A stretch of DNA of 64,000 bases from Actinomycetota bacterium (GCA_009380005.1 WHSQ01000003.1:11224-75223); one strand, 5' to 3'; shown: positions 17,506-53,101, numbered from the stretch's first letter. The notes: generated by a model not told the origin, from the sequence alone. Program-made: numbers and translations.

Positions 17506-18870
17506 CTAGGGACAGGACTGGCCCGCGCAGAACCGGTAAGTCACTAGCCGGCGCGAAAGCCGGCCGACGTTCGCCTCGGATGGCATCGTGGCGCCCTGCG
17601 CGAGCAGGTTGTTCAGCTGATAGGGATCCTCGCGTAGGTCGTAATACTCACTAGCGATCCGTTTGCCGCTCGAGTCGTAGTACTCGTTGTACTGGAAGTC
17701 CTGCGTGACGATGCTGGCCCACGGAGGGATGCCCTTCTGCTCGATCCCGAAGTGTTCCAGCAGGAGATGCTCACGGAGGCGCTCTCCTCCGGCCACATCG
17801 AGCAGCGAACGACCTTCCATAGTGCGGGGGATCTTCCCCGTGGCCGCATCCATGATGGTTGCCGCCACGTCGAGGTTCGCCACCAACGAGTCGTTGGGCC
17901 CGGACGGCTCCAGTCGCTCCGGGTAGCGCACCATCAGTGGGATCTTCGCCGCCGGCAGGTACGGCACGCTCTTGCCGCGCATCCCGTGCTCACCGAACAG
18001 ATATCCGTTGTCGCTGAGGAAGAAGGCCAGGGTGTTATCGGCGGCCTCCTGGCTCCTGAGCTCGTCGAACACTTGTCCGACCATGTCGTCGACGGACATC
18101 AGCGTCAGCTGTTGGGCGCGATGGTTGTCTCGCGTCGCCGCCTTACTCGCCTGTCGCTTGGTCACGATGGCGGGCTTATCGCTGATGTCCGTCTCCCATC
18201 GTGACGGATCCCGGGGGAGGGGTCGGGTCTCGGCATCCTCGTAGCGCGGTTCCGGAGTGGTCGGCGTGTGGGGTGCGCTCACCCAGAGGAACAGGGCCCA
18301 GGGGCCATCCTGGTCTCTTTGGCTCTTCAGGAACCTCAGGCCGTTCTCCTCGACGTAGGTCGTGGAGTATTTATCGATCACCCGTGACTCGCCCTGCACG
18401 TTCCATGTGCCCCCCGAGTAGTGTCCCCCCCCACCGGTGAGGATCGAGAAGCTGTCGAAGTAGGGGGGATCCATCCCCTCGGGCCAGAGGTTCAGGTACT
18501 TCCCGAAGATCGCCGTCTCGTATTCCTCATCCTTGAGGTACTTCGCCACGCTGGTTTCCGGGTCGAGCTTCTCCGCCCAGCCCCGCGTGTTGTTGAGCAC
18601 TCCATGGTGGTGCGCGTAGCGGCCGGAGAGGATGGATGCGCGCGATGGGCAGCACTGCGGCGTGGTCGCGTAGGCCTCTGTGAAGCTGACCCCCTGTTGT
18701 TCGAACAGCCGCTGGGTCTTCGGCATGGCGTGCATCAAGCCGATCGGCTGATCGTCCGTGAGGATCACGAGGATGTTCGGCGGGCGCTCGTCGGATGGGG
18801 AGTCGCTGGTGCACGCCGCGACGAATGCAATCGCTACGAGGGCCGGCAGGAATCGGTTGGAGACGCGCAT
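17506..18870 (-). CDS. Lipoprotein arylsulfatase-like sulfatase
   Basis: About 454-aa type I sulfatase hydrolysing sulfate esters outside the cell. An N-terminal signal ends in a lipobox-like FVAAC, so it is probably lipid-anchored. The formylglycine motif is CCPSRASILSGRY (C-x-P-S-R), the metal-binding start is ILVILTDDQP, and FLSDNGYLFGEHG supplies further metal ligands. An upstream GTG (18876) would add two residues. It needs a formylglycine-generating or anaerobic sulfatase-maturing enzyme, neither of which is in the window. Nearby UDP-sulfoquinovose synthase and sulfotransferase genes suggest sulfated surface glycans or lipids in the same biology. Confidence 0.9.
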   Translation of the reverse strand: MRVSNRFLPALVAIAFVAACTSDSPSDERPPNILVILTDDQPIGLMHAMPKTQRLFEQQGVSFTEAYATTPQCCPSRASILSGRYAHHHGVLNNTRGWAEKLDPETSVAKYLKDEEYETAIFGKYLNLWPEGMDPPYFDSFSILTGGGGHYSGGTWNVQGESRVIDKYSTTYVEENGLRFLKSQRDQDGPWALFLWVSAPHTPTTPEPRYEDAETRPLPRDPSRWETDISDKPAIVTKRQASKAATRDNHRAQQLTLMSVDDMVGQVFDELRSQEAADNTLAFFLSDNGYLFGEHGMRGKSVPYLPAAKIPLMVRYPERLEPSGPNDSLVANLDVAATIMDAATGKIPRTMEGRSLLDVAGGERLREHLLLEHFGIEQKGIPPWASIVTQDFQYNEYYDSSGKRIASEYYDLREDPYQLNNLLAQGATMPSEANVGRLSRRLVTYRFCAGQSCP

Positions 18871-18983
18871 CGTCACTCGCCCTCATGTCGCGGAAGTGCG
18901 GATCGGTATCGGATCCCGCCGGCGTCGAGGATACCTCCCGACGTTTCATCGGCAACTCGAACTACGATGGTAAAAATAGGCGG

Positions 18984-24439: not shown

Positions 24440-25141
24440 CTAGGTGTTCAGGTAGGGCCGTTTGGGCCTATCGACCTTGTCGATCTCACGAGCATCGAGC
24501 ACGATCTCACGGCCCAGGGGATAGATGGAACCGCGCACGCGAACCCATTCATCCTTCTCGAGCTCCCCGGGCGTGGCTCCGACAACGCGCACTTGAACGC
24601 TGAGCGCGTCGGCGACGCAACAAGAGATCAGGAAGCGGGTCAATTGGAACTGATCGGCCGGCATCCCGCGTTCACGGGCGACGAAGCCGACGAAAGTCAC
24701 CTCGGTCCCGGCTCGATCCGCGAGCGCCTTCGCACCCTCGTTCGAGCGCAGGGCGCCGGCGACGTCGGCCAGGTCGAGCCGGCCGGTGGCGATCGACGCT
24801 GGGTCGGCCGCGATCCCACCGCTGACGAAGGTGGAACGGCGTGATGCCGCATAGGTCCCGAGGGACGTCGGCGGCAGCGCCAGAACCGCCACGATCGGGA
24901 TCGCGACGACTGCGGTCCGCACCGCATCCCGGGCTCCGAAGGGTTCTGCATGAGCGGTCCGTGAGGTAAGCAGGCGTCCGATCGCGGCGATCGTCATGAG
25001 GATCGCGCCGACCGGCACGATCCAGTCGGTCCGAGCCGAAAGGTACAGGGAGGTCCGGCCGCCGAGTATCAGGAACCAGAACAGCACGGCCCACGCCGTG
25101 AGGACGGCCGAGGTCAACAGGCGCATCGGGCTCCAACTCAT
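24440..25141 (-). CDS. TIGR03943/DUF1980 (YcgQ-like) family membrane protein, copy 1
   Basis: 233-aa protein with about four N-terminal hydrophobic segments and a soluble C-terminal domain containing the paired cysteines SCCVADA and a final DEWVRVRGSIYP strand. The family is almost always encoded beside a DUF318/YraQ-type permease; the permease gene lies immediately upstream (ATGA overlap at 25138-25141). The function of the pair is not settled; metal-related transport has been suggested for homologues. It is a paralogue of the protein at 28399 (SCCAADA, DQWLRVRGRI). No signal for its regulation is visible. Confidence 0.82.
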   Translation of the reverse strand: MSWSPMRLLTSAVLTAWAVLFWFLILGGRTSLYLSARTDWIVPVGAILMTIAAIGRLLTSRTAHAEPFGARDAVRTAVVAIPIVAVLALPPTSLGTYAASRRSTFVSGGIAADPASIATGRLDLADVAGALRSNEGAKALADRAGTEVTFVGFVARERGMPADQFQLTRFLISCCVADALSVQVRVVGATPGELEKDEWVRVRGSIYPLGREIVLDAREIDKVDRPKRPYLNT

Positions 25142-26130
25142 CCGAGCAGCACCTCCAACCACAGCGTCCCCACCAGCGTCACCGCGGCGACGATGACGAC
25201 GACCGTTCGGAAGAAGCCGCGCGTGAACGTCGCGGCGTAGAGGAAGCCCAATTTCGTATCGACCATCGGGCCGAAGACGAGGAATGCGAGCTGGGACGCG
25301 GGCCCGAACTGAACGAACGACGCCGCGACGAAGGCATCCGACTCCGAGCACAGCGACAACACGAAGGCCAGCCCCATCATCGCCGCCAGGTTCACGATGG
25401 GCGTGTTCGCGATCGCTCCGAGCACCGACTGCGGCACGAACGTCTGCATCGCCGCCGCGACCGCCGCGCCGAGGACCAGGAACCGCGCCATGAAGCTGAA
25501 GTCTCCGGCCAGGTGACCGAAGAAGCGCGCCGAGCGGGTGCCTTCCTCGCCGTGGTGGTGCTCGTCTTCCGGGCGTGGCTTGAGGATGCTTCCCGGAGCG
25601 CGTCCACCGATCACCCAGCCGACGGCCATCGCCGCGACGAGGCCCAGGACGGCGCGGCCCGCGACCATCGGAACCATCACATCGCGGCCCCGGTAGGCGA
25701 CGACCGTCGAGACCAGCACGATCGGGTTGAGGATCGGCGCGGCCAGCATGAACGTGACCGCAGCGGCCGGCGAGAGACCCTTGGCGGCCAGGCGGCGGGC
25801 GACCGGCACCGACCCGCATTCGCACACCGGGAACGCCAATCCCGCCAGACCCGAGGCCGGGAGCTGCAGGGGCTCCGGGAGCCTGGTGAGGCGCTCGAAC
25901 GCCGTGGCCGGGACGAAGACCTCTATCGCCGCGCTCACCAGCGCGCCCAACAACACGAACGGAGCGGCTTCGATCATCAGGGAGTTGAAGACCAGCAGGA
26001 AGTTCTGGAGGCCGGGGATGCCGGTCCAGATCGCTATGGCACCGACCATGATGGCGACCAGGCCGGCGGTGCCCCAGGCCAGGGCGCGCCACGGGGTGCG
26101 GGCAGCCAACGGCTGTGCGAGGTCCGCCAT
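25138..26130 (-). CDS. DUF318/YraQ-type permease, copy 1
   Basis: About 330-aa polytopic membrane protein with two related halves. The family signature FPVCECGSVPVARRLAAKG and the MLAAPILNPIVLVSTVVAYRG segment are in the first half; VLSLCSESDAFVAASF and GPMVDTKLGFLY are in the second. A histidine/acid-rich cytoplasmic loop (DEHHHGEEG) separates them. Relatives include ArsP-like permeases. The ATG at 26130 touches the upstream stop (TGATG); a TTG at 26136 is an alternative. Cysteines in CEC and LCSESD could handle a soft metal or thiol substrate, but that is speculation. Confidence 0.85.
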   Translation of the reverse strand: MADLAQPLAARTPWRALAWGTAGLVAIMVGAIAIWTGIPGLQNFLLVFNSLMIEAAPFVLLGALVSAAIEVFVPATAFERLTRLPEPLQLPASGLAGLAFPVCECGSVPVARRLAAKGLSPAAAVTFMLAAPILNPIVLVSTVVAYRGRDVMVPMVAGRAVLGLVAAMAVGWVIGGRAPGSILKPRPEDEHHHGEEGTRSARFFGHLAGDFSFMARFLVLGAAVAAAMQTFVPQSVLGAIANTPIVNLAAMMGLAFVLSLCSESDAFVAASFVQFGPASQLAFLVFGPMVDTKLGFLYAATFTRGFFRTVVVIVAAVTLVGTLWLEVLLG

Positions 26131-27392
26131 CAGCAATACCTTCCGAACGCCAGCGAGATGCCGGTGAAGACGTCGGCGAACAGCCGTCGACCGTCGACCT
26201 CGATCGCCTTCAACGCCTCCACCAGAGCATCCTCCGAGGTGCCGGTGCGAGCCAGCGCCTTCTGATCGAGGAAGAAGCCCCCCGCCACGGTCCGTTCGAT
26301 CAGGTCGGCCGCTTCGCCGAGCCGGGCGATCAGCTCACGCTCGTCCATCACCGGCTCGGGCCGCTCGCCGGTGCCCACGACGACCGTCAACATGTCGCCG
26401 CCCGATACGCGCTCCACGACGCGAAGAGCTCGTGCGACCGCGGCGTTCACGCGTCGCATCCCTTCGTCCAGGTCCAGGCTGAGGGCGTACAGCGCGCTCT
26501 GATCTCCCTCTTTCACGATGCGTTCGAAGGCGCGGCCGGCCCGCCCGGGATGGGGCTGGACGACGAACGCGTCGCGGTCGGTGTCCACGTACCAGCCGTT
26601 CCCGATCAGGCCCCGGTCGGTGGGCGCGTGAGCCACCATGGCAACCGTCGCCTCCTGGCCCGAGAGCTCGTCGAGATCGTCCGCGAGGGTCGCGATGACG
26701 CTCGTGGGTGCTCCCGGTCGCCACGACGATCTCGCGACCCCGTCCGCATCGCGGATGACCGAGCCTGTGATCCCGTGCTGGCGGGGGACTCCACCCGTTC
26801 CCACCGTCGTGAAGAGCGCGGCCGGATCGGCGGGGATCGAACCCGGCGAAACCTCCCAAGCTCGGCCGGCGTCCACCACCGCCTGGAGGGCGGGTGGTGC
26901 CGCCTCGAGATCGTCCCACCCCTTCAACCCGACGAGGAGGACCACGCGCGGCCGGTCGCCGCCGGGCGCCGAACGGAGGGGCATTGCCTTGCCGGATCTC
27001 ACCTCGGGATGGGCCCGCTCCAGGCCGATGAGGGCCGCGACCGTGGGCGCGATCTGATCGAGCCGAGGGCGATCCGGCGGATCGACCACGGCCGGCATCA
27101 CCACCGGTAGTCCTCCGACGCGCGCATCGATCCCCGGCCACCGCCCGTCGCCCACCTTCAGCGCGCCTTCCGTGCGAGCAACGGCGAACACGTCCGGCGA
27201 GCGGCCCTGCTGGTACCCATCGATGAGGCCGCGCCGTATTTCCGGCGGGAGCCGGCAGAACGGGGCCGAACCGGCGGCCTTGGCCGGCGCGTCGCAGGAA
27301 TGGCCGACGCACAGGGCTCGCATGAGCAACGCCGGCGTTCCGACCAGGCCCAGCAGGATGAGGAGGGTGAGCGTTCGGCGCCCGACGGACAT
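26130..27392 (-). CDS. Degenerate alkaline-phosphatase-superfamily protein (probable pseudoenzyme)
   Basis: About 420-aa protein with an N-terminal membrane anchor or signal (TLTLLILLGLVGTPALLM). It aligns in domain order with the permuted phosphodiesterase-like proteins at 29141, 32176 and 42527, but each catalytic position is altered. The N-terminal HxxPWxY is ARVGGLPV, the first metal Asp (DGGGW) is GLKGW, the nucleophile block is IPADPAALFTTVGTGG, D-xxx-H is DLDEGM and DHG is GTG. The GTG-GxP-xHG tail after the nucleophile region remains, so the fold is probably kept. It leads the minus-strand module with the permease and TIGR03943 genes, suggesting a binding or regulatory role. An ATG at 27422 would overlap the divergent gene, so 27392 is preferred. 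Confidence 0.72.
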   Translation of the reverse strand: MSVGRRTLTLLILLGLVGTPALLMRALCVGHSCDAPAKAAGSAPFCRLPPEIRRGLIDGYQQGRSPDVFAVARTEGALKVGDGRWPGIDARVGGLPVVMPAVVDPPDRPRLDQIAPTVAALIGLERAHPEVRSGKAMPLRSAPGGDRPRVVLLVGLKGWDDLEAAPPALQAVVDAGRAWEVSPGSIPADPAALFTTVGTGGVPRQHGITGSVIRDADGVARSSWRPGAPTSVIATLADDLDELSGQEATVAMVAHAPTDRGLIGNGWYVDTDRDAFVVQPHPGRAGRAFERIVKEGDQSALYALSLDLDEGMRRVNAAVARALRVVERVSGGDMLTVVVGTGERPEPVMDERELIARLGEAADLIERTVAGGFFLDQKALARTGTSEDALVEALKAIEVDGRRLFADVFTGISLAFGRYC

Positions 27393-27403
27393 CCGACCCA
27401 GGC

Positions 27404-27410
27404 TAGCGTA
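27404..27410. promoter_or_regulatory. Symmetric -10 element (TAGCGTA) between the two duplicated modules
   Basis: TAGCGTA reads TAGCGT on plus and TACGCT on minus, both TANNNT. The plus copy ends 7 nt before the GTG at 27416, ideal for a leaderless transcript. The minus copy ends 12 nt before the ATG at 27392. Only 23 bp separate the two starts, so a single bidirectional promoter driving both modules is the simplest reading. Confidence 0.45.
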
Positions 27411-27415
27411 GGGGC

Positions 27416-28402
27416 GTGGCATACCAGCAGGTGGCGGTGCCGGCCCGCTCGACCACGCCCGGCGTCCTCATCGGAGTGGCCGGGCTGACGGTGCTCGTGC
27501 TGGCGGTGCGCGTGACGGGGGCCGGCGAGGCACCCGCCGTCGAGATCTTCGCCTTGATCGCCACCTCGATCATCGTCGAGGCACTGCCCTTCGTGCTTCT
27601 CGGGTCGCTGGTGTCGGCGCTGATCGAGGTTTACGTGCCGGAGCGCGCCCTCGACCGGATCGCCGGCTTCCCACTCTCGGTCCAGATCCCCGGCGCCGCT
27701 CTCGGCGGGCTGGCGTTCCCGGTGTGCGAATGTGGCTCGGTCCCGGTAGCGCGCCGCCTGATAGCGCGAGGCGTCCATCCGTCCGCCGCCGTCGCCTTCA
27801 TGCTGGCCGCGCCGATCGTGAACCCCGTCGTGCTGCTGTCGACGTGGATCGCGTACCGCGGTTTCGGCATCGGGCCCCAGATGGTGGGGGGCCGGGCGCT
27901 CCTGGGCCTCGTCGTCGCCGTCGCGGCGGGCTGGGCCCTGGGAGCGGATAGGGCGACGATCGTCCTCAAGCGAGCGCCCTCGGATGAGCACGCGGGTGGT
28001 TCGCGCGGGGGTGGGTTCGTCGCACACCTCTCGTCGGAGTTCGCGTACATGGCGAAGTTCGTCGTGATCGGAGCGGCCCTGGCGGCCGCCTTGCAGACGA
28101 TCGTTCCGCAGAACATCATCGCCGGCCTCGCGAGCAACACCGTGATCGCGTCGCTGGCCTTGATGGCCCTGGCGTTCGTCCTCTCGCTGTGTTCGGAGGC
28201 GGACGCGTTCGTCGCGATCTCGTTCACGCAGTTCTCGCCCGCAGCACAGCTCGCTTTCCTGGTCTCCGGGCCCGTCCTCGATACGAAGCTGGGCTTCCTC
28301 TACGGGGCGAGCTTCGGCGTCCGGTTCGTGCCGCGCCTGATCATGGTGGTCGTACCGATCGTGCTCGCCGGCGCGCTGTGGTTCGAGGTGCTGATCACAT
28401 GA
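27416..28402 (+). CDS. DUF318/YraQ-type permease, copy 2
   Basis: 328-aa paralogue of the permease at 25138, with the same signatures: LAFPVCECGSVPVARRLIAR, MLAAPIVNPVVLLSTWIAYRG, VLSLCSEADAFVAISF and GPVLDTKLGFLYGASF. Identity is high around the motifs and lower in the loops; the histidine-rich loop of copy 1 is replaced by DEHAGGSRGGG. The GTG is placed for a leaderless transcript (-10 TAGCGT 7 nt upstream). The following TIGR03943 gene overlaps it by 4 nt (ATGA), mirroring copy 1. A duplicated transport unit with different loop chemistry may handle a different substrate. Confidence 0.85.
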   Translation: MAYQQVAVPARSTTPGVLIGVAGLTVLVLAVRVTGAGEAPAVEIFALIATSIIVEALPFVLLGSLVSALIEVYVPERALDRIAGFPLSVQIPGAALGGLAFPVCECGSVPVARRLIARGVHPSAAVAFMLAAPIVNPVVLLSTWIAYRGFGIGPQMVGGRALLGLVVAVAAGWALGADRATIVLKRAPSDEHAGGSRGGGFVAHLSSEFAYMAKFVVIGAALAAALQTIVPQNIIAGLASNTVIASLALMALAFVLSLCSEADAFVAISFTQFSPAAQLAFLVSGPVLDTKLGFLYGASFGVRFVPRLIMVVVPIVLAGALWFEVLIT

Positions 28403-29097
28403 GACTCGACGGTCGTATCGCCGTGCGCTTCGTCCTTCTGCTCGCGTGGGCGTCGTTCCTGGCGTGGCTGTGGTTCTCGGGGGAGATGGTCCGCTACCTG
28501 GGCCCCCGCACGTACTGGGTCATCCCGTTCGGCGCGCTCACGCTGGGAGGAGCCGCTCTGGCGCACCTTCCGTGGCTGCGGGGCGGGCCGAGCGAACCGG
28601 TTCGGAGGTCGGATCTCGTGTCCGGGTTGATCGTGGTCGCCCCTCTTCTGCTGGTGCTCGCGGTCCCGCAGCCGGATCTCGGGTCCCTGGCTGCGTCGCG
28701 TAAGGCATCCTTCGGCGGCGGAGGCGGGCCCGCTCTGATCGTGCCGGGGGCCGGGCACGATGGAGAAGTGGCCTTCATCGACCTCTCCTACGCGAACGAG
28801 TCCGAGGAATATGCCTTGAAGGCCGGCGTCGTCGAGGACGAGATCGTTCATCTCACGGGCTTCGTGAGCGAGGTTTCGCCCGATCGTGTGCGTCTGACCC
28901 GCTTCTACGTCTCGTGCTGCGCGGCTGATGCCGTGCCCTACTCGGCCGACATCCTGTTATCGCCGCGCATGGGCGGCTACTCGCAGGATCAGTGGCTGCG
29001 GGTCCGGGGCCGCATCGCGAAGGACGACGACGGCAGGTACGTCGTGGAGCCGACGATGATCGAGCCCGTAGCCGGGCCCAGGGACCCCTACCTGTAG
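28399..29097 (+). CDS. TIGR03943/DUF1980 (YcgQ-like) family membrane protein, copy 2
   Basis: 232-aa paralogue of the protein at 24440, with hydrophobic N-terminal segments and a soluble C-terminal half. The paired-cysteine motif is FYVSCCAADAVPYS and the terminal strand DQWLRVRGRIAKDDDG. The start codon overlaps the permease stop (ATGA). Compared with copy 1 it has a longer glycine-rich linker (FGGGGGPALIVPGAGHDGE) after the membrane region. It is followed after 43 bp by a permuted phosphatase-superfamily gene. Function as for copy 1 is unassigned. Confidence 0.82.
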   Translation: MRLDGRIAVRFVLLLAWASFLAWLWFSGEMVRYLGPRTYWVIPFGALTLGGAALAHLPWLRGGPSEPVRRSDLVSGLIVVAPLLLVLAVPQPDLGSLAASRKASFGGGGGPALIVPGAGHDGEVAFIDLSYANESEEYALKAGVVEDEIVHLTGFVSEVSPDRVRLTRFYVSCCAADAVPYSADILLSPRMGGYSQDQWLRVRGRIAKDDDGRYVVEPTMIEPVAGPRDPYL

Positions 29098-29140
29098 TCT
29101 CGGGCGGCCCCGTTCGACGGTCCCTCATGGGAGAGATCCT

Positions 29141-30874
29141 TTGGCTAAACGCGTCCTAGCCATACTCGTCGCGGCCGCTGTGGTCGCGGCGGCGGGCGCC
29201 GTGGCGCTTCGGCTCCGGCGCGCCGCAGAACTGGACGGGCCGAGCCAGGCCATCATGGCGAAACAGGCCGGCTCCGACGTCATGGAACACGTCTACCGCG
29301 GGCACGTGGAGGGACGATCCGGCGAGATCTACCTCGTGCCTCGGCCTCACTTCTACATCGTGCCGGGCACCCTCGCCGACCTGCGGAAGCTCTGGACGGA
29401 CGAGCCCGTGTTGATCAACTCCCACCCGAACCCATGGGACTACCTGACACGCGTCCCGATCATCATGAACGGTGAGAGGTGGGCCGAGCCCGGCGTCACC
29501 AACTACGACGTGGTCGACATCGCCGACGTACCCGCCACGTACGCCGAGCTCCTCGACATCGAGACCGAGCAGCAGCTGGACGGCGAGCCGCTTCCCGGCT
29601 TCGATACGTCCGGACCGGATCCCAAGGTCGTGTTCACGGTGGTGATCGACGGCGGCGGGTGGAACGTGCTGCAGCAGCATGTCTCGGCTCATCCGTTCAT
29701 CGATTCGTTGCGTGCGGGCGGGACCACCTACATGAACGCGACGATCGCGTCGGCTCCGTCGATCACCGGCGCGCTTCATGCCACGTTCGGGACCGGCGTC
29801 TATCCGAACAAGCACGGCCTGCCCGGCAACCAGATGCGAGGGCCGGACGGCGAGAACACCGATGCGTGGCGCGACGCCGCGGATCCTCGTTACATGGAGG
29901 TTCCGGCCGTCGCCGAGCTCTGGGACGAACAGCAGGAGAACCGTCCCGTCGTTGCCACCATCTCGTACGAGGGATGGCATCTCGGGATGATCGGCCATGG
30001 CGCTCAGCGCGACGGCGGCGATGAGGACATCGCAGCCCTGTGGGAACAGGAGCCCGGGGAGTGGTGGATCAACGAGAACTACTACCGTCTTCCGCGCGCC
30101 ATCGAAGAGACCGATCTCGAGCGTCTCGAGTCGTACGAGGAAGAGCTCGATCCGCGCGACGGGTTGGCCGACGGGTCGTGGTTCGGCCACGAGTTGGAGT
30201 ATCTGCAGGAGCCGATCGTACGTCCCGGTACTCCGGCGTTCGTTCGCTTCACCGGCGACGCCGTGGTCGACATGCTGCGGGACGAGGGCATCGGCACCGA
30301 CGACGTCACGGACTTCGTCTGGATCGAGATGAAGATGCCCGATTACGCCGGCCACGCGTGGAACATGATCAACCCCGAGCAGGGTGACGTCCTGCGCGAG
30401 ACCGACCGTCAGCTCGCTCGCTTCAAGGACGAACTCGATCGGCTGGTAGGCGCGGGCGACTACCTGTACGCGGTCAGCGCCGACCACGGTCAACAGCCGC
30501 TGCCTGACCTCCTGGGCGGATGGCGCATCAACCAGAAAGAGATGGAGGATGACATCGCCGACGCCTTCGGAGACGTGCTCGAGAAGTCGACGCCGGTCGA
30601 TCTCTACGTCGACCGCGACGCGATGGAAACAGAGGGCGTCGGCCTTGACGACATCGCCCGCTTCCTCGGGGCTTACACGATCGGGGACAACATCCCCGAC
30701 GACGCGCCGGGGGCCGATCGGGTACCGGAGGAGTGGCTGGACGAGCGGATCTTCGTCGGCGCCTTCTCGACGGACTACCTCCTCGGCTTGGATCCGGACG
30801 CGATCGAGGCCTTCGGAGACGGGGACCATCCGGAAGGGCGTCTCACGATCGGCTCCGACGGCGGAGGCGGATAG
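29141..30874 (+). CDS. Circularly permuted alkaline-phosphatase-superfamily phosphodiesterase-like protein A
   Basis: 577 aa with an N-terminal membrane anchor (about 5-22), probably facing outside. The residues that bind two zinc ions in type I phosphodiesterases are all present, but in rotated order. The block EGRSGEIYLVPRPHF, then H95 in NSHPNPWDYLTRVP, comes first; it is normally C-terminal. Then D170 (VVIDGGGWN), the Ser/Thr nucleophile region APSITGALHATFGTG (near 206-219), D401/H405 (PDYAGH) and D448/H449 (ADHGQQ). It should hydrolyse a phosphate mono- or diester. TTG start with GGGAG 6 nt upstream. It is downstream of the permease/TIGR03943 pair and 9 nt before an MFS gene. Confidence 0.83.
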   Translation: MAKRVLAILVAAAVVAAAGAVALRLRRAAELDGPSQAIMAKQAGSDVMEHVYRGHVEGRSGEIYLVPRPHFYIVPGTLADLRKLWTDEPVLINSHPNPWDYLTRVPIIMNGERWAEPGVTNYDVVDIADVPATYAELLDIETEQQLDGEPLPGFDTSGPDPKVVFTVVIDGGGWNVLQQHVSAHPFIDSLRAGGTTYMNATIASAPSITGALHATFGTGVYPNKHGLPGNQMRGPDGENTDAWRDAADPRYMEVPAVAELWDEQQENRPVVATISYEGWHLGMIGHGAQRDGGDEDIAALWEQEPGEWWINENYYRLPRAIEETDLERLESYEEELDPRDGLADGSWFGHELEYLQEPIVRPGTPAFVRFTGDAVVDMLRDEGIGTDDVTDFVWIEMKMPDYAGHAWNMINPEQGDVLRETDRQLARFKDELDRLVGAGDYLYAVSADHGQQPLPDLLGGWRINQKEMEDDIADAFGDVLEKSTPVDLYVDRDAMETEGVGLDDIARFLGAYTIGDNIPDDAPGADRVPEEWLDERIFVGAFSTDYLLGLDPDAIEAFGDGDHPEGRLTIGSDGGGG

Positions 30875-30883
30875 GTTGCCGGC

Positions 30884-32179
30884 GTGGGCATGATCAAACA
30901 GGCGCTGGGCCTCGTCCGGAGCTCGCGCGATTTCGCCCTCCTGCTCGGAACCCAGGTGTTCGCGCAGGCCGGCGATGGGATCGTCCAGGCCGCCCTCGCC
31001 AAGTACATCGCCTTCGGAGGCCAGGAGGGCTTCGATCTCGAGGGCGCTCGCTCACCGGACGAGCTTCTGCGGATCGCGCTCTACATCTTCGTGCCGTACA
31101 CGATCCTCAGCCCGTTCTTCGGCGTGGTCATAGACCGTTGGGATCGACGTCGTCTCCTGTTCCTGGCGAACGGTCTGAGGGCCGTGGTGGTCGCCCTCAT
31201 CGCGTTGTGGGGCATCGGCCGGACCGGCGACGTCGCGCTGTTCGCCGCGTTCCTGCTCACGCTGTCGTCGACCCGGGTGGTGCTCGCGACGAAGGCCGCG
31301 GCCCTCCCGGCAACGCTGGGCGGCAGGGATCTGGTCATCGGTAACGCGGTGTCCCAGATGCTCGGCGCCATGTTCCAGATCGCGGGCGTCGCCTTCGCAT
31401 TCATCGCGGCCGGCCTCGTCGAGGTCGCACCCATCGTCATCATCGGCTGCGTCGTATATGGGATCGGCGCCGCCCTCGCGTTGTCGATGCAGCGGGCCGG
31501 AGAACATGTCGTCAAGAGCGGCCTCGGCCGAGAGATCGCGCGCGTCGCCGCCAACATCGCTGCGGGGATCCGAGAGGTCGCACAGCATCCGAAGGCTGCA
31601 GCTTCGATCACCACCTACTTCTGGTTGCGCCTGTTGTGGAGCTTCGCGATCGCGGCGGTCGGTTTCGTTGCGCGAGAGCTCCTGACGGATGACAACTTCG
31701 CCATCGCGATCCTGACCGGGGGCGCGCTGGCGGCCGGCGGAGGTTTGGGCTTCCTCCTGGCGCGGTCGCTGCACGAACGCGCTCGTACCTCGGCCCACCT
31801 CGTCGTCGGGTCCGCGATCGTGGCCGGCGTCGCGATGCTGGTCCTCGGCCCCCTCAAGTTCCAGGCGGGCATCGCGCTGTTGATGTTCTTCCTGGGTCTC
31901 GGGTTCTTCCTGGGCAAGATCTCCCTGGACACGATGGTGCAGGAGGCCCTGGGCGACGACTTCCGGGGGCGTGCGTTCTCCCTCTACGACATCTCCTACA
32001 ACCTGGCCTGGGTGGCGGCTGCCTCCATACTCAAGATCTTCTGGGCGGATGAGGGACAGAGCGTCTTGCTCTCCGGCATGGGCCTCGTGTTCCTGATCGG
32101 GGTCGCCATCCTGGCGGCGTGGTACCGGCGCGCCGGGTTGTTCACCCTGACCGTACCGAGTGGGGGAAGCGGCCCATAA
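30884..32179 (+). CDS. MFS transporter
   Basis: 431-aa, 12-segment major-facilitator protein with motif A-like GVVIDRWDRRRLLFLANG after TM2 and a long first extracytoplasmic loop (about residues 40-65, GGQEGFDLEGARSPDE). Similarity is to the same broad DHA3-like group as the protein at 6766, but they are not close. It lies between two permuted phosphatase-family genes and its TAA overlaps the proposed ATA start of the next one, so the three are probably translated from one message. Substrate unknown; lipid or phospho-compound export is only a guess from context. Confidence 0.83.
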   Translation: MGMIKQALGLVRSSRDFALLLGTQVFAQAGDGIVQAALAKYIAFGGQEGFDLEGARSPDELLRIALYIFVPYTILSPFFGVVIDRWDRRRLLFLANGLRAVVVALIALWGIGRTGDVALFAAFLLTLSSTRVVLATKAAALPATLGGRDLVIGNAVSQMLGAMFQIAGVAFAFIAAGLVEVAPIVIIGCVVYGIGAALALSMQRAGEHVVKSGLGREIARVAANIAAGIREVAQHPKAAASITTYFWLRLLWSFAIAAVGFVARELLTDDNFAIAILTGGALAAGGGLGFLLARSLHERARTSAHLVVGSAIVAGVAMLVLGPLKFQAGIALLMFFLGLGFFLGKISLDTMVQEALGDDFRGRAFSLYDISYNLAWVAAASILKIFWADEGQSVLLSGMGLVFLIGVAILAAWYRRAGLFTLTVPSGGSGP

Positions 32180-33807
32180 AGAGCAGCACCGGGCGTATCG
32201 CGCTGGTCGTTCTGGTCTCCCTGGCCCTCGGGCTCGGTGCCTACGTCGGCGTGGGACGTCTCATCGAGGAAGACGTCCCGGGGTTCAGGGAGCAGGCCTG
32301 CAGCCTGCCGCGCGAGTGGCTCGAGCTCACCCGGCGTGGGCATTTCGAAGCTCGGTCCGGCCAGATCTCGCTGCTTCCTCGGACGCCGGCGTACATGCAA
32401 CAGGGCAGGAGTGGGTGGAGCCATTCCGGGCCGTGGCCGTACCTGCAGGACGTACCACTGGTTTTCTACGGACCGGGGGTGCTCGACGAGGGCGTCGAGG
32501 TGGATCGCCCGGTCGACCTCGCCGACGTGGCGCCTACGATGGCCACGTTGCTCAAGGGAGGCCTGGCCGCCGACGGCGCCTCCCTGGACGAAGTCGCCAT
32601 GGTGGACGAGGAGTTCGTCACCAGGCCGAACCTCAAGCTGATCGTCACCATCGTCTGGGACGGCGGTGGATGGAACACCTTGCGCCAGTGGCCCGACGAC
32701 TGGCCGAACCTGAAGGCCATGATGGAAGGGGGCGTTACCTACACGGCTGCCACCGCCGGATCGTCGCCGTCGGTCACGCCGGCGGTGCACACGACGATCG
32801 GTACGGGCTTCTATCCGGCGACGCACGGTGTCACCGGGGTCCCGGTCCGAGATGAGGAAGGCGAGGTCGTCGACGCCTTCCTCGACGGCGAGTCCTCTCG
32901 GTTCATCCAGGTGCCCGCGCTCGCCGAACGGTGGGACGTTCAGAACGGCAACGAGGCGCTCGTCGGTATGGTCGGCTACGAGCCGTGGCACCTCGGCATG
33001 ATCGGCAAGGGGGCCGAGTCCCAGGGCGGCGACAAGGATCACGCCGCGTGGCTGAACGTCGAGACGAACGAGTGGAAGACGAACGCCGACCACTACGAGT
33101 TGCCGCGATCGCTCCGCGAGACCGGCGGGCTCGAAGAGGATCTGGACGAGCTGGATGCGGCGGACGGTGCCCGCGACCGCGCCTGGGGGCCGCACGCGAT
33201 CCTGGACGACCCATCCCGGATCGAGGAAACGCCCGCCTTCATCCGCTATCACACGCGCGCCATGCTGAACTTGCTGGAGCAGGAGGGTTACGGGGACGAT
33301 GACATCACCGACCTACTCTTCACCAACTACAAACAGATAGATCGCGTCGGGCACTACTTCAACATGGCATCGGATGAGGTTCGCCAATCCTTGGTCGAGA
33401 CCGACGACCAGCTCGGGGTGATCCTCGATCATCTGGATCGCGACGTCGGCCGAGGTCGCTACGCGGTCGTGCTCACGGCCGACCACGGCCAACAGCCCGA
33501 CGCCGGGCCGATCGACGGCTATCCGATCGATCCCAACGAGGTCAAGGCAGATATCGCCGGACGTTTCGGACCGATCGTGAGGGCCGTATGGCCCACGGAG
33601 GTCTTCCTGCTGCCCGATGAGATGGACGAGCGCGGCGTTACCGTTGAAGACGTCGCGCGTTTCCTGAGCGGCTATCGCCTCCGGGACAACGTCAAGGGTC
33701 CCGCCGCCCTCTACAAATCCGCGGGCTCGTTCGGGCCCTCAAGCAGGCTCTTCGACCTCGCGATCCCGGCGGCGATCCTCCCGGGGATGTCCTGTGGGCC
33801 CGGTTAG
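32176..33807 (+). CDS. Circularly permuted alkaline-phosphatase-superfamily phosphodiesterase-like protein B (non-standard start likely)
   Basis: About 543 aa, membrane-anchored at its N-terminus. Same rotated motif order as protein A: RRGHFEARSGQISLLPRT, then H83 in WSHSGPWPYLQDVPLVFYGPG (normally C-terminal) and VDLADVAPTMATLL. Next come D162 (IVWDGGGWN), SSPSVTPAVHTTIGTG, QIDRVGHYFNM (D..H) and TADHGQQ. No ATG, GTG or TTG lies between a GTG at 32119 and the membrane segment. An ATA at 32176 overlaps the upstream stop (ATAA), has GGGGGA 8 nt upstream and aligns with the start of protein A. AUA initiation is therefore proposed; GTG 32119 would add 19 residues inside the MFS gene. Confidence 0.8.
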   Translation: MKSSTGRIALVVLVSLALGLGAYVGVGRLIEEDVPGFREQACSLPREWLELTRRGHFEARSGQISLLPRTPAYMQQGRSGWSHSGPWPYLQDVPLVFYGPGVLDEGVEVDRPVDLADVAPTMATLLKGGLAADGASLDEVAMVDEEFVTRPNLKLIVTIVWDGGGWNTLRQWPDDWPNLKAMMEGGVTYTAATAGSSPSVTPAVHTTIGTGFYPATHGVTGVPVRDEEGEVVDAFLDGESSRFIQVPALAERWDVQNGNEALVGMVGYEPWHLGMIGKGAESQGGDKDHAAWLNVETNEWKTNADHYELPRSLRETGGLEEDLDELDAADGARDRAWGPHAILDDPSRIEETPAFIRYHTRAMLNLLEQEGYGDDDITDLLFTNYKQIDRVGHYFNMASDEVRQSLVETDDQLGVILDHLDRDVGRGRYAVVLTADHGQQPDAGPIDGYPIDPNEVKADIAGRFGPIVRAVWPTEVFLLPDEMDERGVTVEDVARFLSGYRLRDNVKGPAALYKSAGSFGPSSRLFDLAIPAAILPGMSCGPG

Positions 33808-33808
33808 G

Positions 33809-35860
33809 ATGCCGCCCTCCATGACCCACGACACCTTGACCGAACGCGCCCGGGAACCATCGGGACCCGGCGCCACCGCCCGGCCCCCTGCGCAACGTCC
33901 GGCCCATCCCGCCGCCATCCTGGCGACGGCGGGGGTCCTGCTGGCCATCTTCGGGTGGACCTTCGTGACCAACCCGGAGCGCGTCGCTCCGACGAAGGAT
34001 CCCGCCTACTACAACTGGCGGACCGAGGCGTTGATCTCGGAGGAGCCTCGGACCCTCCTCGAGCTCGAGGGGGCCTTCGAGATGTTCGCCGGCGGTTACC
34101 GGGTCGCCGCTCCCGTCATCGGCGGTCTGCTCCGGCAGATCCCGAGGGTCTCACAGCTCAACGTCACCATCGTCTTGATGATGGTGGTCCCGGTTCTGAC
34201 CTCGTTGCTCCTGGCCGGGTTCGCCTACCGGCAGCTGCGCGACCCGCTCGCCTTCCACGCGGTCGCGTTCGGCGTCGCGAGTCTGTATCTGGCCCCGCCG
34301 TTCGTCGGTTACCTGGACAACGTCTTGTGTCTGATGTTCCTCGCCGCCTCGTTGCACTTCATGCGGGGCACGCGTGATTCGTGGGCGATGCGCATCGCCT
34401 TCGGTGGCGCGCTCCTGCTTGCGGGCTTCACTCACCCCACGACGCTGGTGATCTTCTGTCTCACGTTGGGTTTGATCGCCGCCCTGCGGCTCGTCTTTCG
34501 TCGCTTCGACCTGAAGGGCGTGCTTCGGGACGACGGTCCGATGTTGCTCACGGCTTTCGCCGCCGCCGGGCTCACGGCCGTCATATGGACGGTCGGGATC
34601 TGGGGGGTGAGCGCGTCGCTGACCGAGTCGGCCCTGCCCCCGCCGTACGGGAGCGCTTTCTTCCTGGCACGGATGCTCGACTGGATAGCGGCCATGCGTC
34701 CCGCGTTGAACCTGCCGCTGCTCGCCCTCGGACTGGTCGCGGTGCTGCTCGGGGGGCGTCGCTGGATCGAGAACGACCTATCGGCCGTCTCCATCGCGTG
34801 GCTGGCTCCGTTGGCCGGCTCGCTGGGCTTCGTCGCCGGGCTCGCCTTCCCCTATTACCGATTCTTCAACACGACGCTCGCATGGGTCCTCCTCGTCGGC
34901 GTGGGGATCTTCGTGGCGACGAGGTTCTTCCTGCTGATCGCGCAGCGCGGTGGGTTCAATCGTCTGGCGCTTCTGGGCGTCGTGGCGATCGTCCTGGTGA
35001 TCGCCACGAACTTCACGACGCAGTTGAGGCTGTCGGGTTGGAACGATCCGAAGAAGGGTTGGCTGTCCTCCGTCCACAAGCAGGACCTGATGGCGCTGCG
35101 CTCGAACCTGGAGGCTCGAGCGACGGAAGACACCCCGGTGGTCTTCGTCATCGACGACGAGCCCGCCCGTCCGTTCCAGATCTGGGGCTTTACGAAGCTG
35201 TCGGGGAACACGTCCCGCTTCGGGATGCCGTCCGGCCAGATCGATCGCGCCTACCTCTACCTCGGCTCGCTCGAGAACTATCTCGCCGGCGTGCCCACCG
35301 AGAGGGGCGAGGAGACCTACGACGAGCTGTCGCCGGCCCTCCTCGAAGATGCCGAGGCCGGCATCGAGGCCTCGGGAGAAGAGCCCATCCCGGTGGTCGC
35401 CCGGATCTTCAACCTGAAGGGAGCGAACGCAGCGGTTGCGTCCGGAGAGGAGACCCCCTCGGTGGGGGCCGACGACTCCGTCTGGGTTCTGCGCGACGGG
35501 GCGGTCACGGAGGTGACGGGGGACGGTCCCGTGCAGCGCGGGGTGCTCGACGTTCAGGTGGCGTCGTCCGGCCCCCTCCACCTCGTCTGGGTCCTCATTG
35601 CGCTGACCGCGCTGCTGGTACCCGGGTACCTGTTGCTGCGCTGGGCCCTGCCCGATGCAGACCTGGCGGTGGCCGTCGGTATGGCTCCCGTCATGTCGAT
35701 CTCCGCGCTGACGCTGGTGGGGATAGCGATGCTGGCCGTGGCGCGCGCTCCGATGTCATCCCCGATCGCCTGGGCCACCGCGGCCATCGCCCTGGGCCTC
35801 GCCTGGGTCGCCGGCACGCGCGGACCTCGACGACGCGGCGAGAGCCCCGCTCCGGCTTGA
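33809..35860 (+). CDS. Large polytopic membrane protein of unknown function
   Basis: About 683 aa. Some 10 hydrophobic segments (residues ~35-420) are followed by a soluble domain (~430-585) and then three more hydrophobic segments near the C-terminus. The N-terminal part resembles the membrane core of GT-C-like enzymes (an early loop with NPERVAPTKDPAYYNW), but no catalytic motif is certain. It starts two bases after the upstream stop (ATG 33809; ATG 33821 also possible), and its stop overlaps the TTG of the O-antigen-ligase-like gene (TTGA). Place and company suggest envelope polysaccharide or glycolipid assembly. Confidence 0.72.
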   Translation: MPPSMTHDTLTERAREPSGPGATARPPAQRPAHPAAILATAGVLLAIFGWTFVTNPERVAPTKDPAYYNWRTEALISEEPRTLLELEGAFEMFAGGYRVAAPVIGGLLRQIPRVSQLNVTIVLMMVVPVLTSLLLAGFAYRQLRDPLAFHAVAFGVASLYLAPPFVGYLDNVLCLMFLAASLHFMRGTRDSWAMRIAFGGALLLAGFTHPTTLVIFCLTLGLIAALRLVFRRFDLKGVLRDDGPMLLTAFAAAGLTAVIWTVGIWGVSASLTESALPPPYGSAFFLARMLDWIAAMRPALNLPLLALGLVAVLLGGRRWIENDLSAVSIAWLAPLAGSLGFVAGLAFPYYRFFNTTLAWVLLVGVGIFVATRFFLLIAQRGGFNRLALLGVVAIVLVIATNFTTQLRLSGWNDPKKGWLSSVHKQDLMALRSNLEARATEDTPVVFVIDDEPARPFQIWGFTKLSGNTSRFGMPSGQIDRAYLYLGSLENYLAGVPTERGEETYDELSPALLEDAEAGIEASGEEPIPVVARIFNLKGANAAVASGEETPSVGADDSVWVLRDGAVTEVTGDGPVQRGVLDVQVASSGPLHLVWVLIALTALLVPGYLLLRWALPDADLAVAVGMAPVMSISALTLVGIAMLAVARAPMSSPIAWATAAIALGLAWVAGTRGPRRRGESPAPA

Positions 35861-50013: not shown

Positions 50014-51477
50014 TCAGTGCGCGCCTTCGCCCGAGACCACCGCTCGGAACGTTCGCCACAGGATCCAGAGGTCCAGGGAGAGCGACCAGTTCTGGATGTA
50101 GAACAGGTCGAATCGGACGTAGTCCGAGAAGGACGTTTCGGCTCGTCCGCTAACCTGCCAGAGCCCCGTCATCCCCGGTTTCACGTTGAGCCGGTTGCGA
50201 ACCCAGTGGTCGTACTGCTCGACCTCGGAGGGAAGGGCAGGCCGCGGCCCCACGAGGCTCATCTCCCCCCGGAACACGTTGATCAGCTGGGGAAGCTCGT
50301 CCAGCGAATAGCGGCGCAGGAAGCGCCCGGCCCCCGTGACGCGGGGGTCCTCCTTGAGCTTGAAGAGCAGGCCCGGGCCCTCCGACTGCGCCTCCAGCTC
50401 GGCCCGCTTATCCTCCGCGTCTCTCACCATCGTCCGGAACTTCCAGACGACGAACGGCTCGCCGTCCCGGCTCACTCTCACCTGCCGGAAGTAGACGGGA
50501 CCCTCGGAGTCCCGCTTGATCCACAGCGAGAAGACGGCGAACACGGGGGAGAGCAGCACCAGTCCCAGCGTCGAACCGAGCAGGTCGATGGCTCGTTTCA
50601 GGGCGCGCTGGAACGGGTTGATACCGGAACGCCGCACGTACAGCAACGGGATGCCCGCCACCGACTGCACGATCACCCGCGAAGCGAGCAGGTCCATGGT
50701 CCCGGACGTGATCTGCAGATCGACGTCGGCGTCCTGCAACTCCCAGAACAACCGGTTCAGCCGGCCGGCGTCGAACGCCGACGCCGCGACCAGCACGAGG
50801 CCCACGTGGTGCCGGCGGATCAGGTCCTCGAGGTCCTGGGTCGAGCCCAGCACCTTCTTGTCTCCGACGACTTCCTGCCCGGGTTGTACCTCGTCGTCGA
50901 CGAAGCCAACGATCCGGTACCCGAGCCAACCCTCCCGTTCCAGCGTTCGAACCATCGTCCGCGCTTCCTGGTTGGCGCCCAACACGATCGTGCTCGTGGT
51001 GTCTCCGCCACGACGTCGCAGGAAATGCAGGATCTTGCGGACGAGGAGGCGCTCGCCGCCGACGATCACCAGGCCCGACCCGAGAGCCAGCAAGCCCCAA
51101 CCGCGCGCGAGGTCGCCTCCGAACAACTTCAGCGCGTCCGCGACGAAGATCGTGATGGTCCCGGCCACGACGCCGTTGAACACCTGTTTGAACTCGTTGA
51201 CGGGCCCCAACACCTGGCGGGGCTCGTACAGGCCGTACAGCCAGAAGAGCAGCAGCCACACGGGGGTGGCTACCAGCGCGATCATGCCGTAGTCGACGCC
51301 CCGAGCCGGCGAGCCCGGCATGAGCTCGAACCGGACGATGGAGGCCACGAAGAGCGCTGCCGACACCGCCAGGCCGTCGGCCAGGACCCGGAGCGCGATC
51401 CGCTTGAAGCTGCGACGCGCCGCGGGCGTGCGAGTGGGCTGCGAGGAGGGCTCGAGCGAGCGAGCCGGTTCGGCCAT
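50014..51477 (-). CDS. Polyprenyl-phosphate sugar phosphotransferase (WcaJ/WbaP-like)
   Basis: 487-aa initiating enzyme that puts a hexose-1-phosphate on undecaprenyl/polyprenyl phosphate to start a surface polysaccharide. Four to five N-terminal membrane segments, a Rossmann-like CoA-binding-type region (about 140-270) and the C-terminal bacterial sugar transferase domain are all present. Motifs are KRAIDLLGSTLGLVLLSP, VWKFRTMVRDAE, RRYSLDELPQLINVFRGEMS and LVGPRPALPSEV. It is a full-length member. Together with Wzx- and Wzy-like genes at 35857-39138 it gives a complete lipid-linked assembly line. Confidence 0.92.
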   Translation of the reverse strand: MAEPARSLEPSSQPTRTPAARRSFKRIALRVLADGLAVSAALFVASIVRFELMPGSPARGVDYGMIALVATPVWLLLFWLYGLYEPRQVLGPVNEFKQVFNGVVAGTITIFVADALKLFGGDLARGWGLLALGSGLVIVGGERLLVRKILHFLRRRGGDTTSTIVLGANQEARTMVRTLEREGWLGYRIVGFVDDEVQPGQEVVGDKKVLGSTQDLEDLIRRHHVGLVLVAASAFDAGRLNRLFWELQDADVDLQITSGTMDLLASRVIVQSVAGIPLLYVRRSGINPFQRALKRAIDLLGSTLGLVLLSPVFAVFSLWIKRDSEGPVYFRQVRVSRDGEPFVVWKFRTMVRDAEDKRAELEAQSEGPGLLFKLKEDPRVTGAGRFLRRYSLDELPQLINVFRGEMSLVGPRPALPSEVEQYDHWVRNRLNVKPGMTGLWQVSGRAETSFSDYVRFDLFYIQNWSLSLDLWILWRTFRAVVSGEGAH

Positions 51478-51493: not shown

Positions 51494-53101
51494 CTAGAGA
51501 TAGCCGAGGCCCCGTAGGGCGTCTTCTATCTGTTCCTCCTCTTCGGCGGAGTAGGGAGAGTCCTCGCCGTCCCCCGAGCGGGCCGGAGGTTCCGTCCACG
51601 TGATCGGGTTCGCATCGAGGTGGGAGGGAGAGAACGCGCCCCTCAGCACCTCGCCGTCGAGGCCCGTCGGTACGTCCAGGCCCGCCTGGTAGAGGAGCGT
51701 CGGGGTCACGTCCATCACGGTTCCTTCGATGCGCCCGCCGGCCTCGACGCCCGCGCCGGCGACGATCACGATCCCGTCCGGGTGATGGACGCCGCGGGGG
51801 AGGTCGGCGACGTTGGTGAAGCGCTCGTGGTGGAAGATCTCGTCGTCGAGCTCGTAGGTGTGATCGCGCAGCACCGGGAAGAGGTCGGGCGCGCGCTCCA
51901 GCTCCGATCCGCTCAACACGTCCTCGCGCTTGTGCACGACGTCGGTGACTGGCTTCCCATCCGGCCCCCGCAGTTCTTCGAAGCGCGCTATCAACTCGTC
52001 ACGGACGGCGTCGATCTCGGCGGCCTCGACGATGCCGAATCGTTCGCGACCCTTCACGTTCACATGCACGCCCTGCTGGGGGATGTTGGAGGCGAACGCT
52101 CTGGTGCGCGACCAATCGATCGCCTTGAACGTGTGCCCCTTCGCCTGCCGGGCGATGCGCCGCGACAACACGCGCTTAGCGACCGGCACCATCGCCCGCG
52201 CGAGCTTCGTCCGCATCAGGCGCGCCGTCGGCCTGGTGCGCATGTATCCCCACTCCGCCAACAGCGCGTTGGTGCGAACCGTGACCAGCCACGCGGTGAA
52301 GCCGTGATCCGAGCACACGATCGCACCTCCGTCCGGGCCGGCCCAGTCGCCCAGCAGGCCTACGACGCGATCGAGCGCGGCGAAGCACGTCTCTACCTCC
52401 GGCCGGATCCGCTTCGCAGCCGCGGTGTCGTAGAGCTCGTCCGAGGGATCCAGGTAGCGGTAGTAGACGTGCTGCAGCCGGTCGGGGGCCTCCATCACCG
52501 AGAACACGACGTCGACGGGGTCGTCCTGCAACAGTCGCTCCAGGACGACGTATCGCTGTTCTATCGACGCCAACCCCCGCCGGCAGAGCTCGGCGTCGCG
52601 CCAGTCGGTCTCGTAGTTGGCGCTCAGGTCGATCACGTAACCGGGAGCCCACCGTTCGATCCGCTGCGTCAGCTCCGCGGGGTACGCGAACCCGCGCTGC
52701 CGTTCGCCGAAGCCGGGGGTCATCATCCCCGCGACCATCCAACCGTCCACGGGCTGAGGGGGATACGTCAGCGGGATGTTGTAGGCGCCGACGCGCACCC
52801 CTTGCGCACGGGTCATGTCCCACAACGTCGGGGCCTTCACCTTCCCCGCGTGCATCAGCTCCACGGGTTCGTCCTGGATGTTCCCGAACTGGAACCCATA
52901 GATGCCGTGCCGGCCCGGGTTGACGCCGGTGACGGCCGAGGTCCACGCCGGTGGCGTGTAGGTCGGGACCGTGGAGCGCAACGTCCCCCATGCTCCCCGG
53001 TCCCGCAGGGCTGCGAGACGAGGCATGACTCCGGCCTCGATCAGCGGATCGATCAGGTGCCAGGCGGCCCCGTCGAGGCCGATCACCGCCGCCCTAGCCA
53101 T
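51494..53101 (-). CDS. Type I phosphodiesterase/nucleotide pyrophosphatase-like AP-superfamily protein, LGYL tail (copy 2)
   Basis: 535 aa, ordinary motif order: AAVIGLDGAAWH near residue 5, PTYTPPAWTSAVTGVNPGRHG, EAPDRLQHVYY (D..H) and IVCSDHGFT. No signal peptide. Ends in EDALRGLGYL. Paralogue of the protein at 45958 with the same length and block order, including SRTRAFASNIPQQGVHVN against SRTKAFSAPIPQQGVYVN. The ATG overlaps the glycerol-1-phosphate dehydrogenase-like gene by 8 nt, so the pair is translationally coupled, while the other copy is coupled to a CDP-alcohol phosphotransferase. Substrate probably a phospho-alcohol diester; inferred only. Confidence 0.87.
   Translation of the reverse strand: MARAAVIGLDGAAWHLIDPLIEAGVMPRLAALRDRGAWGTLRSTVPTYTPPAWTSAVTGVNPGRHGIYGFQFGNIQDEPVELMHAGKVKAPTLWDMTRAQGVRVGAYNIPLTYPPQPVDGWMVAGMMTPGFGERQRGFAYPAELTQRIERWAPGYVIDLSANYETDWRDAELCRRGLASIEQRYVVLERLLQDDPVDVVFSVMEAPDRLQHVYYRYLDPSDELYDTAAAKRIRPEVETCFAALDRVVGLLGDWAGPDGGAIVCSDHGFTAWLVTVRTNALLAEWGYMRTRPTARLMRTKLARAMVPVAKRVLSRRIARQAKGHTFKAIDWSRTRAFASNIPQQGVHVNVKGRERFGIVEAAEIDAVRDELIARFEELRGPDGKPVTDVVHKREDVLSGSELERAPDLFPVLRDHTYELDDEIFHHERFTNVADLPRGVHHPDGIVIVAGAGVEAGGRIEGTVMDVTPTLLYQAGLDVPTGLDGEVLRGAFSPSHLDANPITWTEPPARSGDGEDSPYSAEEEEQIEDALRGLGYL

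What the first reader, a model, noticed from the sequence alone, without database searches (positions are those of the whole stretch)
24440..33807. Divergent duplicated module: permease + TIGR03943 protein + AP-superfamily genes
Seen: minus strand carries AP-like pseudoenzyme, permease, TIGR03943; plus strand carries permease, TIGR03943, AP protein A, MFS, AP protein B. Permease and TIGR03943 pairs are clear paralogues with the same ATGA coupling, and the two arms share a 23-bp promoter gap. Known: the permease/TIGR03943 pair is a recurrent unit of uncertain substrate. Inference: paired with surface phosphodiesterases, the modules may form a transport-and-hydrolysis system, one arm using a non-catalytic subunit. 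This is the best candidate here for an undescribed system.
Basis: partly seen in the sequence, partly recalled or inferred. Interest (0 to 1): 0.75.

Follow-up and report, generated by a model that had tools for sequence, protein, structure and literature searches.

The report
Zinc-linked permease with inactive phosphatase partner
An uncultured actinobacterium carries a conserved three-gene unit in which a dead, rearranged alkaline-phosphatase-like protein is tied to a poorly understood membrane permease pair; relatives place the unit between live phosphatases of the same rearranged kind and a zinc-uptake operon, which suggests that the permease handles zinc for those outside-the-cell enzymes.

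Summary
The genes are as described: two permease (PF03773) + TIGR03943/DUF1980 pairs with ATGA overlaps, divergent across 23 bp, an AP-like pseudoenzyme on the minus arm, and AP A-MFS-AP B on the plus arm. Two readings change. (1) It is not a recent local duplication: the two permeases belong to different, well-supported clades. Only the minus arm is a tight module: pseudo-AP-permease-TIGR03943 is contiguous wherever contigs allow the test, and its permeases form one clade. The plus-arm pair comes and goes beside a conserved surface-glycan cluster. (2) The substrate hint is zinc, not an AP product. In 9 relatives of a second family the module lies between divergent AP genes and zur-znuB-znuC-znuA. 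Generic permease/TIGR03943 pairs lack AP neighbours (0/79) but 36/79 have Zur/Znu/COG0523 genes nearby. The APs are circularly permuted relative to PafA and keep all metal ligands; the partner has lost all seven active-site residues in 21/21 homologues but has four invariant cysteines. Best guess (confidence 0.4): a zinc-handling permease that metallates extracytoplasmic permuted APs through the pseudo-AP. Transport, metal and direction are untested.

The parts
24440..25141 (-). TIGR03943/DUF1980 subunit of the pseudo-AP module (N-terminal TM helices, then a domain with the conserved CC motif)
   Evidence: TIGR03943 108.9 bits over cut-off 88.8; PF21537 58.1; alignment A4; hydropathy
25138..26130 (-). 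Permease of the ArsP_1/DUF318 family (FPVCECGSVPVARRL and CSESDAFV motifs), pseudo-AP-linked clade; ATGA overlap with TIGR03943 gene
   Evidence: PF03773 158.6 bits; clade of all 22 pseudo-AP-linked permease rows, support 99/96; overlap read
26130..27392 (-). Conserved pseudo-alkaline-phosphatase: one N-terminal TM helix, permuted AP fold, no metal ligands or nucleophile, four invariant Cys; TGATG overlap with permease
   Evidence: contiguous with permease in 22 rows
27393..27415 (.). 23-bp divergent promoter gap with back-to-back TANNNT boxes (TAGCCT 7 nt from the minus ATG, TAGCGT 6 nt from the plus GTG): probably leaderless on both sides
   Evidence: sequence; the spacing recurs upstream of 13 of 20 pseudo-AP genes, shuffled mean 0.48
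27416..28402 (+). Second ArsP_1/DUF318 permease, of a different clade that also holds AP-free pairs of Gaiellaceae/Solirubrobacterales
   Evidence: PF03773 149.1 bits; tree
28399..29097 (+). Second TIGR03943/DUF1980-like subunit, ATGA overlap
   Evidence: PF21537 34.1 over 25.9; TIGR03943 77.6, below cut-off 88.8
29141..30874 (+). AP A: circularly permuted PafA-type alkaline-phosphatase-superfamily enzyme, all seven active-site residues present
30884..32179 (+). MFS transporter, conserved between AP A and AP B in family f1
   Evidence: PF07690 53.3 bits; synteny
32119..33807 (+). AP B: second circularly permuted AP (start codon uncertain; alignable from about 32176)
   Evidence: PF01663 103 bits; permutation; residues
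33794..35857 (+). Multi-TM protein with no Pfam family, conserved downstream of AP B and, with AP genes, also in family f9

Best explanation
The functional unit is the minus-arm operon pseudo-AP / DUF318 permease / TIGR03943. I propose that the permease and TIGR03943 subunit move zinc across the cytoplasmic membrane and hand it to the permuted alkaline-phosphatase-type enzymes, which need two metal ions and act outside the membrane, probably on the surface glycan made by the neighbouring cluster. The membrane-anchored pseudo-AP, which keeps the permuted fold but none of the catalytic metal ligands, would serve as docking subunit or chaperone so that zinc is released where AP folds. Shown here: operon, linkage, permutation, loss of the active site, and the zinc neighbourhood in relatives. 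Inferred: that the metal is zinc, that the direction is outward, that the pseudo-AP contacts the APs, and that the APs work on the glycan.
For: Pseudo-AP/permease/TIGR03943 contiguous wherever testable; permeases monophyletic. Within families f1 and f9, pseudo-AP and DUF1980 genes occur together or not at all (23 both, 8 neither, 2 discordant; Fisher p = 5.6e-6), while permuted APs are present in all these genomes, so the pseudo-AP goes with the permease. In 9 f9 genomes the unit lies between divergent AP genes and convergent zur-znuB-znuC-znuA, confirmed by Pfam FUR, ABC-3, ABC_tran and ZnuA at two loci, with Zur-box-like palindromes at znuA. Generic permease/TIGR03943 pairs: zinc genes in 19/13/13% of 2-kb bins within 6 kb against about 2% at 6-10 kb, and no AP (0/79). 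APs keep all ligands (55-57 of 57 rows); the pseudo-AP has none in 21/21 rows, with four invariant Cys. Precedents by mechanism: TerC proteins MeeF/MeeY supply Mn to LtaS (PMC10550928); ZNT5-6/ZNT7 supply zinc to AP-like PIGN/PIGO/PIGG (PMC9168625).
Against: Nothing here shows transport, metal specificity or direction. In the window's own family Znu genes are mostly not next to the module (own znuA lies on another contig). No Zur box lies between AP and pseudo-AP genes. Nine f1/f9 genomes have permuted APs but no pseudo-AP, so the APs do not need it everywhere. Permeases are far below the SO_0444 Cu/Zn efflux cut-off (52-67 of 300 bits). The f9 synteny may be one inherited arrangement.
Confidence: 0.4

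Rival explanations
1. Zinc recovery: the permease/TIGR03943 pair takes zinc in, with the surface APs serving as zinc store or the pseudo-AP docking on them to recover zinc when it is scarce.
For: Adjacency to Zur/ZnuABC, a zinc-uptake system; several Bacillaceae pairs have Zur-box-like palindromes upstream of the permease (weak scan).
Against: No Zur box at the pseudo-AP promoter in f9 or f1 while znuA in the same loci has one; the promoter looks constitutive and leaderless; characterised ArsP_1 members are exporters (general knowledge).
Confidence: 0.2
2. Transport-and-hydrolysis: the permease moves a phosphorylated glycan, lipid or the product of the phosphodiesterases, and the pseudo-AP is a substrate-binding subunit.
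For: Conserved linkage of AP genes, permease and a Wzy/Wzx surface-glycan cluster in f1; an inactive AP could still bind substrate.
Against: The same permease family occurs without APs in other taxa and near zinc genes instead; the conserved Cys motifs of permease and TIGR03943 protein suit a soft metal better.
Confidence: 0.2
3. Passive neighbours: a zinc-homeostasis island and a surface-glycan/AP cluster happen to be adjacent and were inherited together.
For: In f1 the plus-arm pair and AP core separate freely; f9 synteny may reflect one ancestor.
Against: The pseudo-AP is itself an AP homologue, coupled by gene overlap to the permease in the window and contiguous with it in two families that differ elsewhere in synteny, and lost or kept together with it.
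Confidence: 0.2

Closest known systems
ScfAB / YcgR-YcgQ (DUF318 permease + TIGR03943 protein of Gram-positives)
   Same: Same two protein families in adjacent genes (identification of ScfAB with these families is from my own knowledge plus the topology and B. subtilis names in the paper), function unknown; scfAB needed for group A streptococcus fitness in vivo (PMC5584981)
   Different: No pseudo-AP gene in the operon and no AP neighbours reported; here the unit is extended by a dedicated inactive AP homologue
PafA/PhoK-type alkaline phosphatases
   Same: Sequence match to PafA over three blocks; all metal ligands and nucleophile kept in AP A and AP B
   Different: The C-terminal block with the third His ligand is moved to the N-terminus (circular permutation); far below the PafA equivalog cut-off (82-109 of 650 bits)
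TerC family MeeF/MeeY (Mn supply to LtaS, an extracytoplasmic enzyme)
   Same: Proposed role: membrane transporter metallating an extracytoplasmic enzyme of the AP superfamily (PMC10550928; that LtaS belongs to the AP superfamily is general knowledge)
   Different: Unrelated transporter family, manganese not zinc, no pseudoenzyme partner
ZNT5-6 / ZNT7 of the animal secretory pathway
   Same: Zinc transporters that activate alkaline phosphatase and the AP-like PIGN/PIGO/PIGG (PMC9168625)
   Different: CDF family, organelle membrane; analogy of role only

Membership tests
DUF318 (ArsP_1) permease + TIGR03943 pair | Permease matches PF03773 over its cut-off | tested here: met
   158.6 and 149.1 bits, cut-off 32.3
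DUF318 (ArsP_1) permease + TIGR03943 pair | Adjacent protein matches TIGR03943 over its cut-off | tested here: inconclusive
   Minus arm 108.9 (met), plus arm 77.6 (below 88.8) but PF21537 met on both
Alkaline-phosphatase superfamily, active enzyme (AP A, AP B) | Two-metal site and nucleophile: D, T/S, D-H, D-H, H | tested here: met
   All seven present in AP A and AP B and in 55-57 of 57 homologue rows
Alkaline-phosphatase superfamily, active enzyme (pseudo-AP) | Two-metal site and nucleophile | tested here: not met
   None of seven in 21/21 rows: D to K/A, T to P, DxxxH deleted, DH to TG, H lost
PafA family | Canonical order of blocks (N-terminal nucleophile, C-terminal His ligand) | tested here: not met
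   Query 145-222 = PafA 11-90, 359-503 = 267-415, 46-131 = 435-521; N-terminal profile alone hits PafA 439-531, E 4e-12
PafA family | NCBIfam PafA equivalog score | tested here: not met
   82.5 and 109 of 650 bits
SO_0444 Cu/Zn efflux transporters | NF033936 equivalog score | tested here: not met
   52.1 and 67.4 of 300 bits
Exoenzyme-metallating transporters (role, as TerC Mee proteins) | Loss of transporter leaves an exported metalloenzyme without metal | not testable with these tools
   Needs a mutant and metal analysis
Zur regulon | Zur box at the promoter of the pseudo-AP operon | tested here: not met
   Six znuA-linked sites score 21.6-25.6 bits (they are the training set); none between AP and pseudo-AP genes

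The most novel reading that the evidence does not exclude
A bacterial system dedicated to loading zinc into extracytoplasmic phosphatases, in which a conserved, catalytically dead and circularly permuted AP paralogue is a permanent subunit of a DUF318/TIGR03943 transporter; this would give a substrate and a client to a widespread permease pair of unknown function.
Probability: 0.3. Interest if true: 0.85.

Novelty: new variant of a known kind. Interest (0 to 1): 0.6.

Why it matters
DUF318/TIGR03943 (ScfAB, YcgRQ) pairs are found from Bacillota to Actinomycetota and matter for streptococcal fitness, yet have no assigned substrate. The zinc neighbourhood, and a subclade tied to a dead phosphatase beside live ones, turn the question into a direct test: does the pair handle zinc for exported enzymes? 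The permuted AP family and its uniformly inactivated paralogue are also a clean natural case of a pseudoenzyme that appears to have been recruited as a transporter partner.

Tried and rejected
Recent local duplication of the two arms: rejected by the permease tree. The pseudo-AP as a merely decaying gene: rejected, the same degenerate motifs recur in 21/21 homologue rows of two main families, although single genomes (G005, G007) do have broken copies. Zur control of the module: no box found; boxes upstream of generic pairs were too weak to use. G286 (family f47) as independent support: dropped, its permeases are identical to those of G009, so bin contamination is likely. AlphaFold model of AP B: the job's rule allowed only four rows, pLDDT 55; best Foldseek match PafA, not relied on for the permutation. 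Solved structures for permease and TIGR03943 protein: none found. Literature: no paper found under TIGR03943, COG3689/DUF1980 or COG0701/DUF318 that gives a substrate, and none describing a permuted AP of this kind; subscription journals are not covered. Permuted APs in another phylum could not be searched.

Full report
1. What is there. and the translations give, on the minus strand, an AP-like gene (26130-27392), a permease (25138-26130) and a TIGR03943 gene (24440-25141); on the plus strand a permease (27416-28402), a TIGR03943-like gene (28399-29097), AP A (29141-30874), an MFS gene (30884-32179) and AP B (about 32119-33807). Both permease/TIGR03943 junctions are ATGA overlaps and the AP-like stop overlaps the minus permease ATG. 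The 23-bp gap has a TANNNT box 6-7 nt before each start. The same spacing precedes 13 of 20 pseudo-AP genes against a shuffled mean of 0.48, so leaderless transcription from a conserved promoter is likely.

2. The AP genes are circularly permuted. A profile of four homologues matches solved PafA in three blocks out of order: query 145-222 to PafA 11-90, 359-503 to 267-415, and 46-131 to 435-521. A profile of the N-terminal block alone (15 sequences) hits PafA 439-531 with E 4e-12 and PhoK at the same C-terminal place. All 15 of those N-terminal blocks match the PhoY model and 14 the PafA model at E up to 0.1; the first one, printed in full, matches PafA model positions 462-537 of 554. The AlphaFold model is poor (pLDDT 55); its best PDB match is PafA, but I do not rest on it. 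Full-length permuted APs were found in families f1, f9, f51 and f58, in 35 of 396 sampled genomes of the phylum, with up to eleven matches of the family (pieces included) in one genome.

3. The AP-like gene is a conserved pseudoenzyme. In 57 AP rows the seven metal and nucleophile residues are nearly invariant (55-57 of 57). In 21 of 21 AP-like rows none survives, and the replacements are themselves conserved (D to K in 19, T to P, DH to TG, the DxxxH stretch deleted). Four cysteines are invariant in 21/21; at three of these columns the APs have almost none. Two of the 21 rows are copies of others (L047/L083 are one contig; L163 is a copy of L036), so 19 are distinct. The protein has one N-terminal TM helix.

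4. What it travels with. The pseudo-AP, permease and TIGR03943 gene are contiguous in every locus where the contig allows the test. The 22 pseudo-AP-linked permease rows (20 distinct) form one clade (99/96), separate from the plus-arm permeases, whose clade (100/99) also contains AP-free pairs of Gaiellaceae, Solirubrobacterales and other Actinomycetota. So the arms are not a recent duplication. By presence and absence in f1 and f9, pseudo-AP and DUF1980 agree in 31 of 33 genomes (p = 5.6e-6; genomes are related, so the value is indicative), while APs are present in all. The AP A-MFS-AP B core with downstream polymerase/flippase-type genes (Wzy_C, Polysacc_synt) is conserved in f1 with or without the plus-arm pair.

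5. The zinc link. Among the 79 nearest named permease loci outside the AP-linked group, 74 have a DUF1980 neighbour, none has an AP or pseudo-AP, and 36 have a Fur/Zur, Znu or COG0523 gene in the stretch held. The frequency falls from 19/13/13% per 2-kb bin within 6 kb to about 2% at 6-10 kb. The profiles used were built from genes found within 6 kb, and many loci are related (for example seven Glycomyces), so this is an enrichment, not a count of independent events. In nine f9 genomes (including KatS3mg013, L083) the module lies between divergent AP genes and convergent zur-znuB-znuC-znuA. Pfam confirms FUR, ABC-3, ABC_tran and ZnuA at L083 and L165, and Zur-box-like palindromes lie at znuA in six of the loci. 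None lies at the module's promoter. In f1, the window's family, a Znu piece was seen near the module only in G008.

6. Mechanism. The linked facts are: enzymes that keep a two-metal site and carry export signals, a dead homologue fixed to a permease, and a permease family that sits by zinc genes. Zinc supply to the APs, with the pseudo-AP as docking subunit, explains all three and has two precedents for the role in other transporter families: MeeF/MeeY for LtaS (PMC10550928) and ZNT5-6/ZNT7 for alkaline phosphatase and PIGN/PIGO/PIGG (PMC9168625). The absence of a Zur box at the module's promoter fits a housekeeping supply role better than starvation-induced recovery, but direction is not shown. 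I give this 0.4.

7. Novelty. Components are known families; the permuted AP family, its uniformly inactivated paralogue, and the fixed unit of that paralogue with a ScfAB-type permease were not found described in the papers searched. I rate it a new variant of a known kind.

Noticed in passing
   Followed up: partly
window 51494-53101 (-): Another PF01663 phosphodiesterase, apparently not permuted (match starts at residue 5), near a bacterial sugar transferase (50014-51477) and a DUF4012 gene (54870-56873).
   Followed up: no
window 17506-18876 (-): Sulfatase (PF00884, 141.5 bits) with a lipoprotein-like N-terminus, about 6 kb from the module.
   Followed up: no
window 33794-35857 (+): 688-aa multi-TM protein with no Pfam match that accompanies permuted APs in both f1 and f9.
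   Followed up: partly
L173:10405-18707: Five permuted AP genes in tandem beside the pseudo-AP module in G068.
   Followed up: no
L163 (G286) and L036 (G009): Identical permeases in genomes assigned to different families (f47, f1): probable contamination of the G286 bin.
   Followed up: partly
L177 and L179: Pseudo-AP genes broken by an internal stop or frameshift in G007 and G005, so the unit is decaying in some f1 genomes.
   Followed up: no
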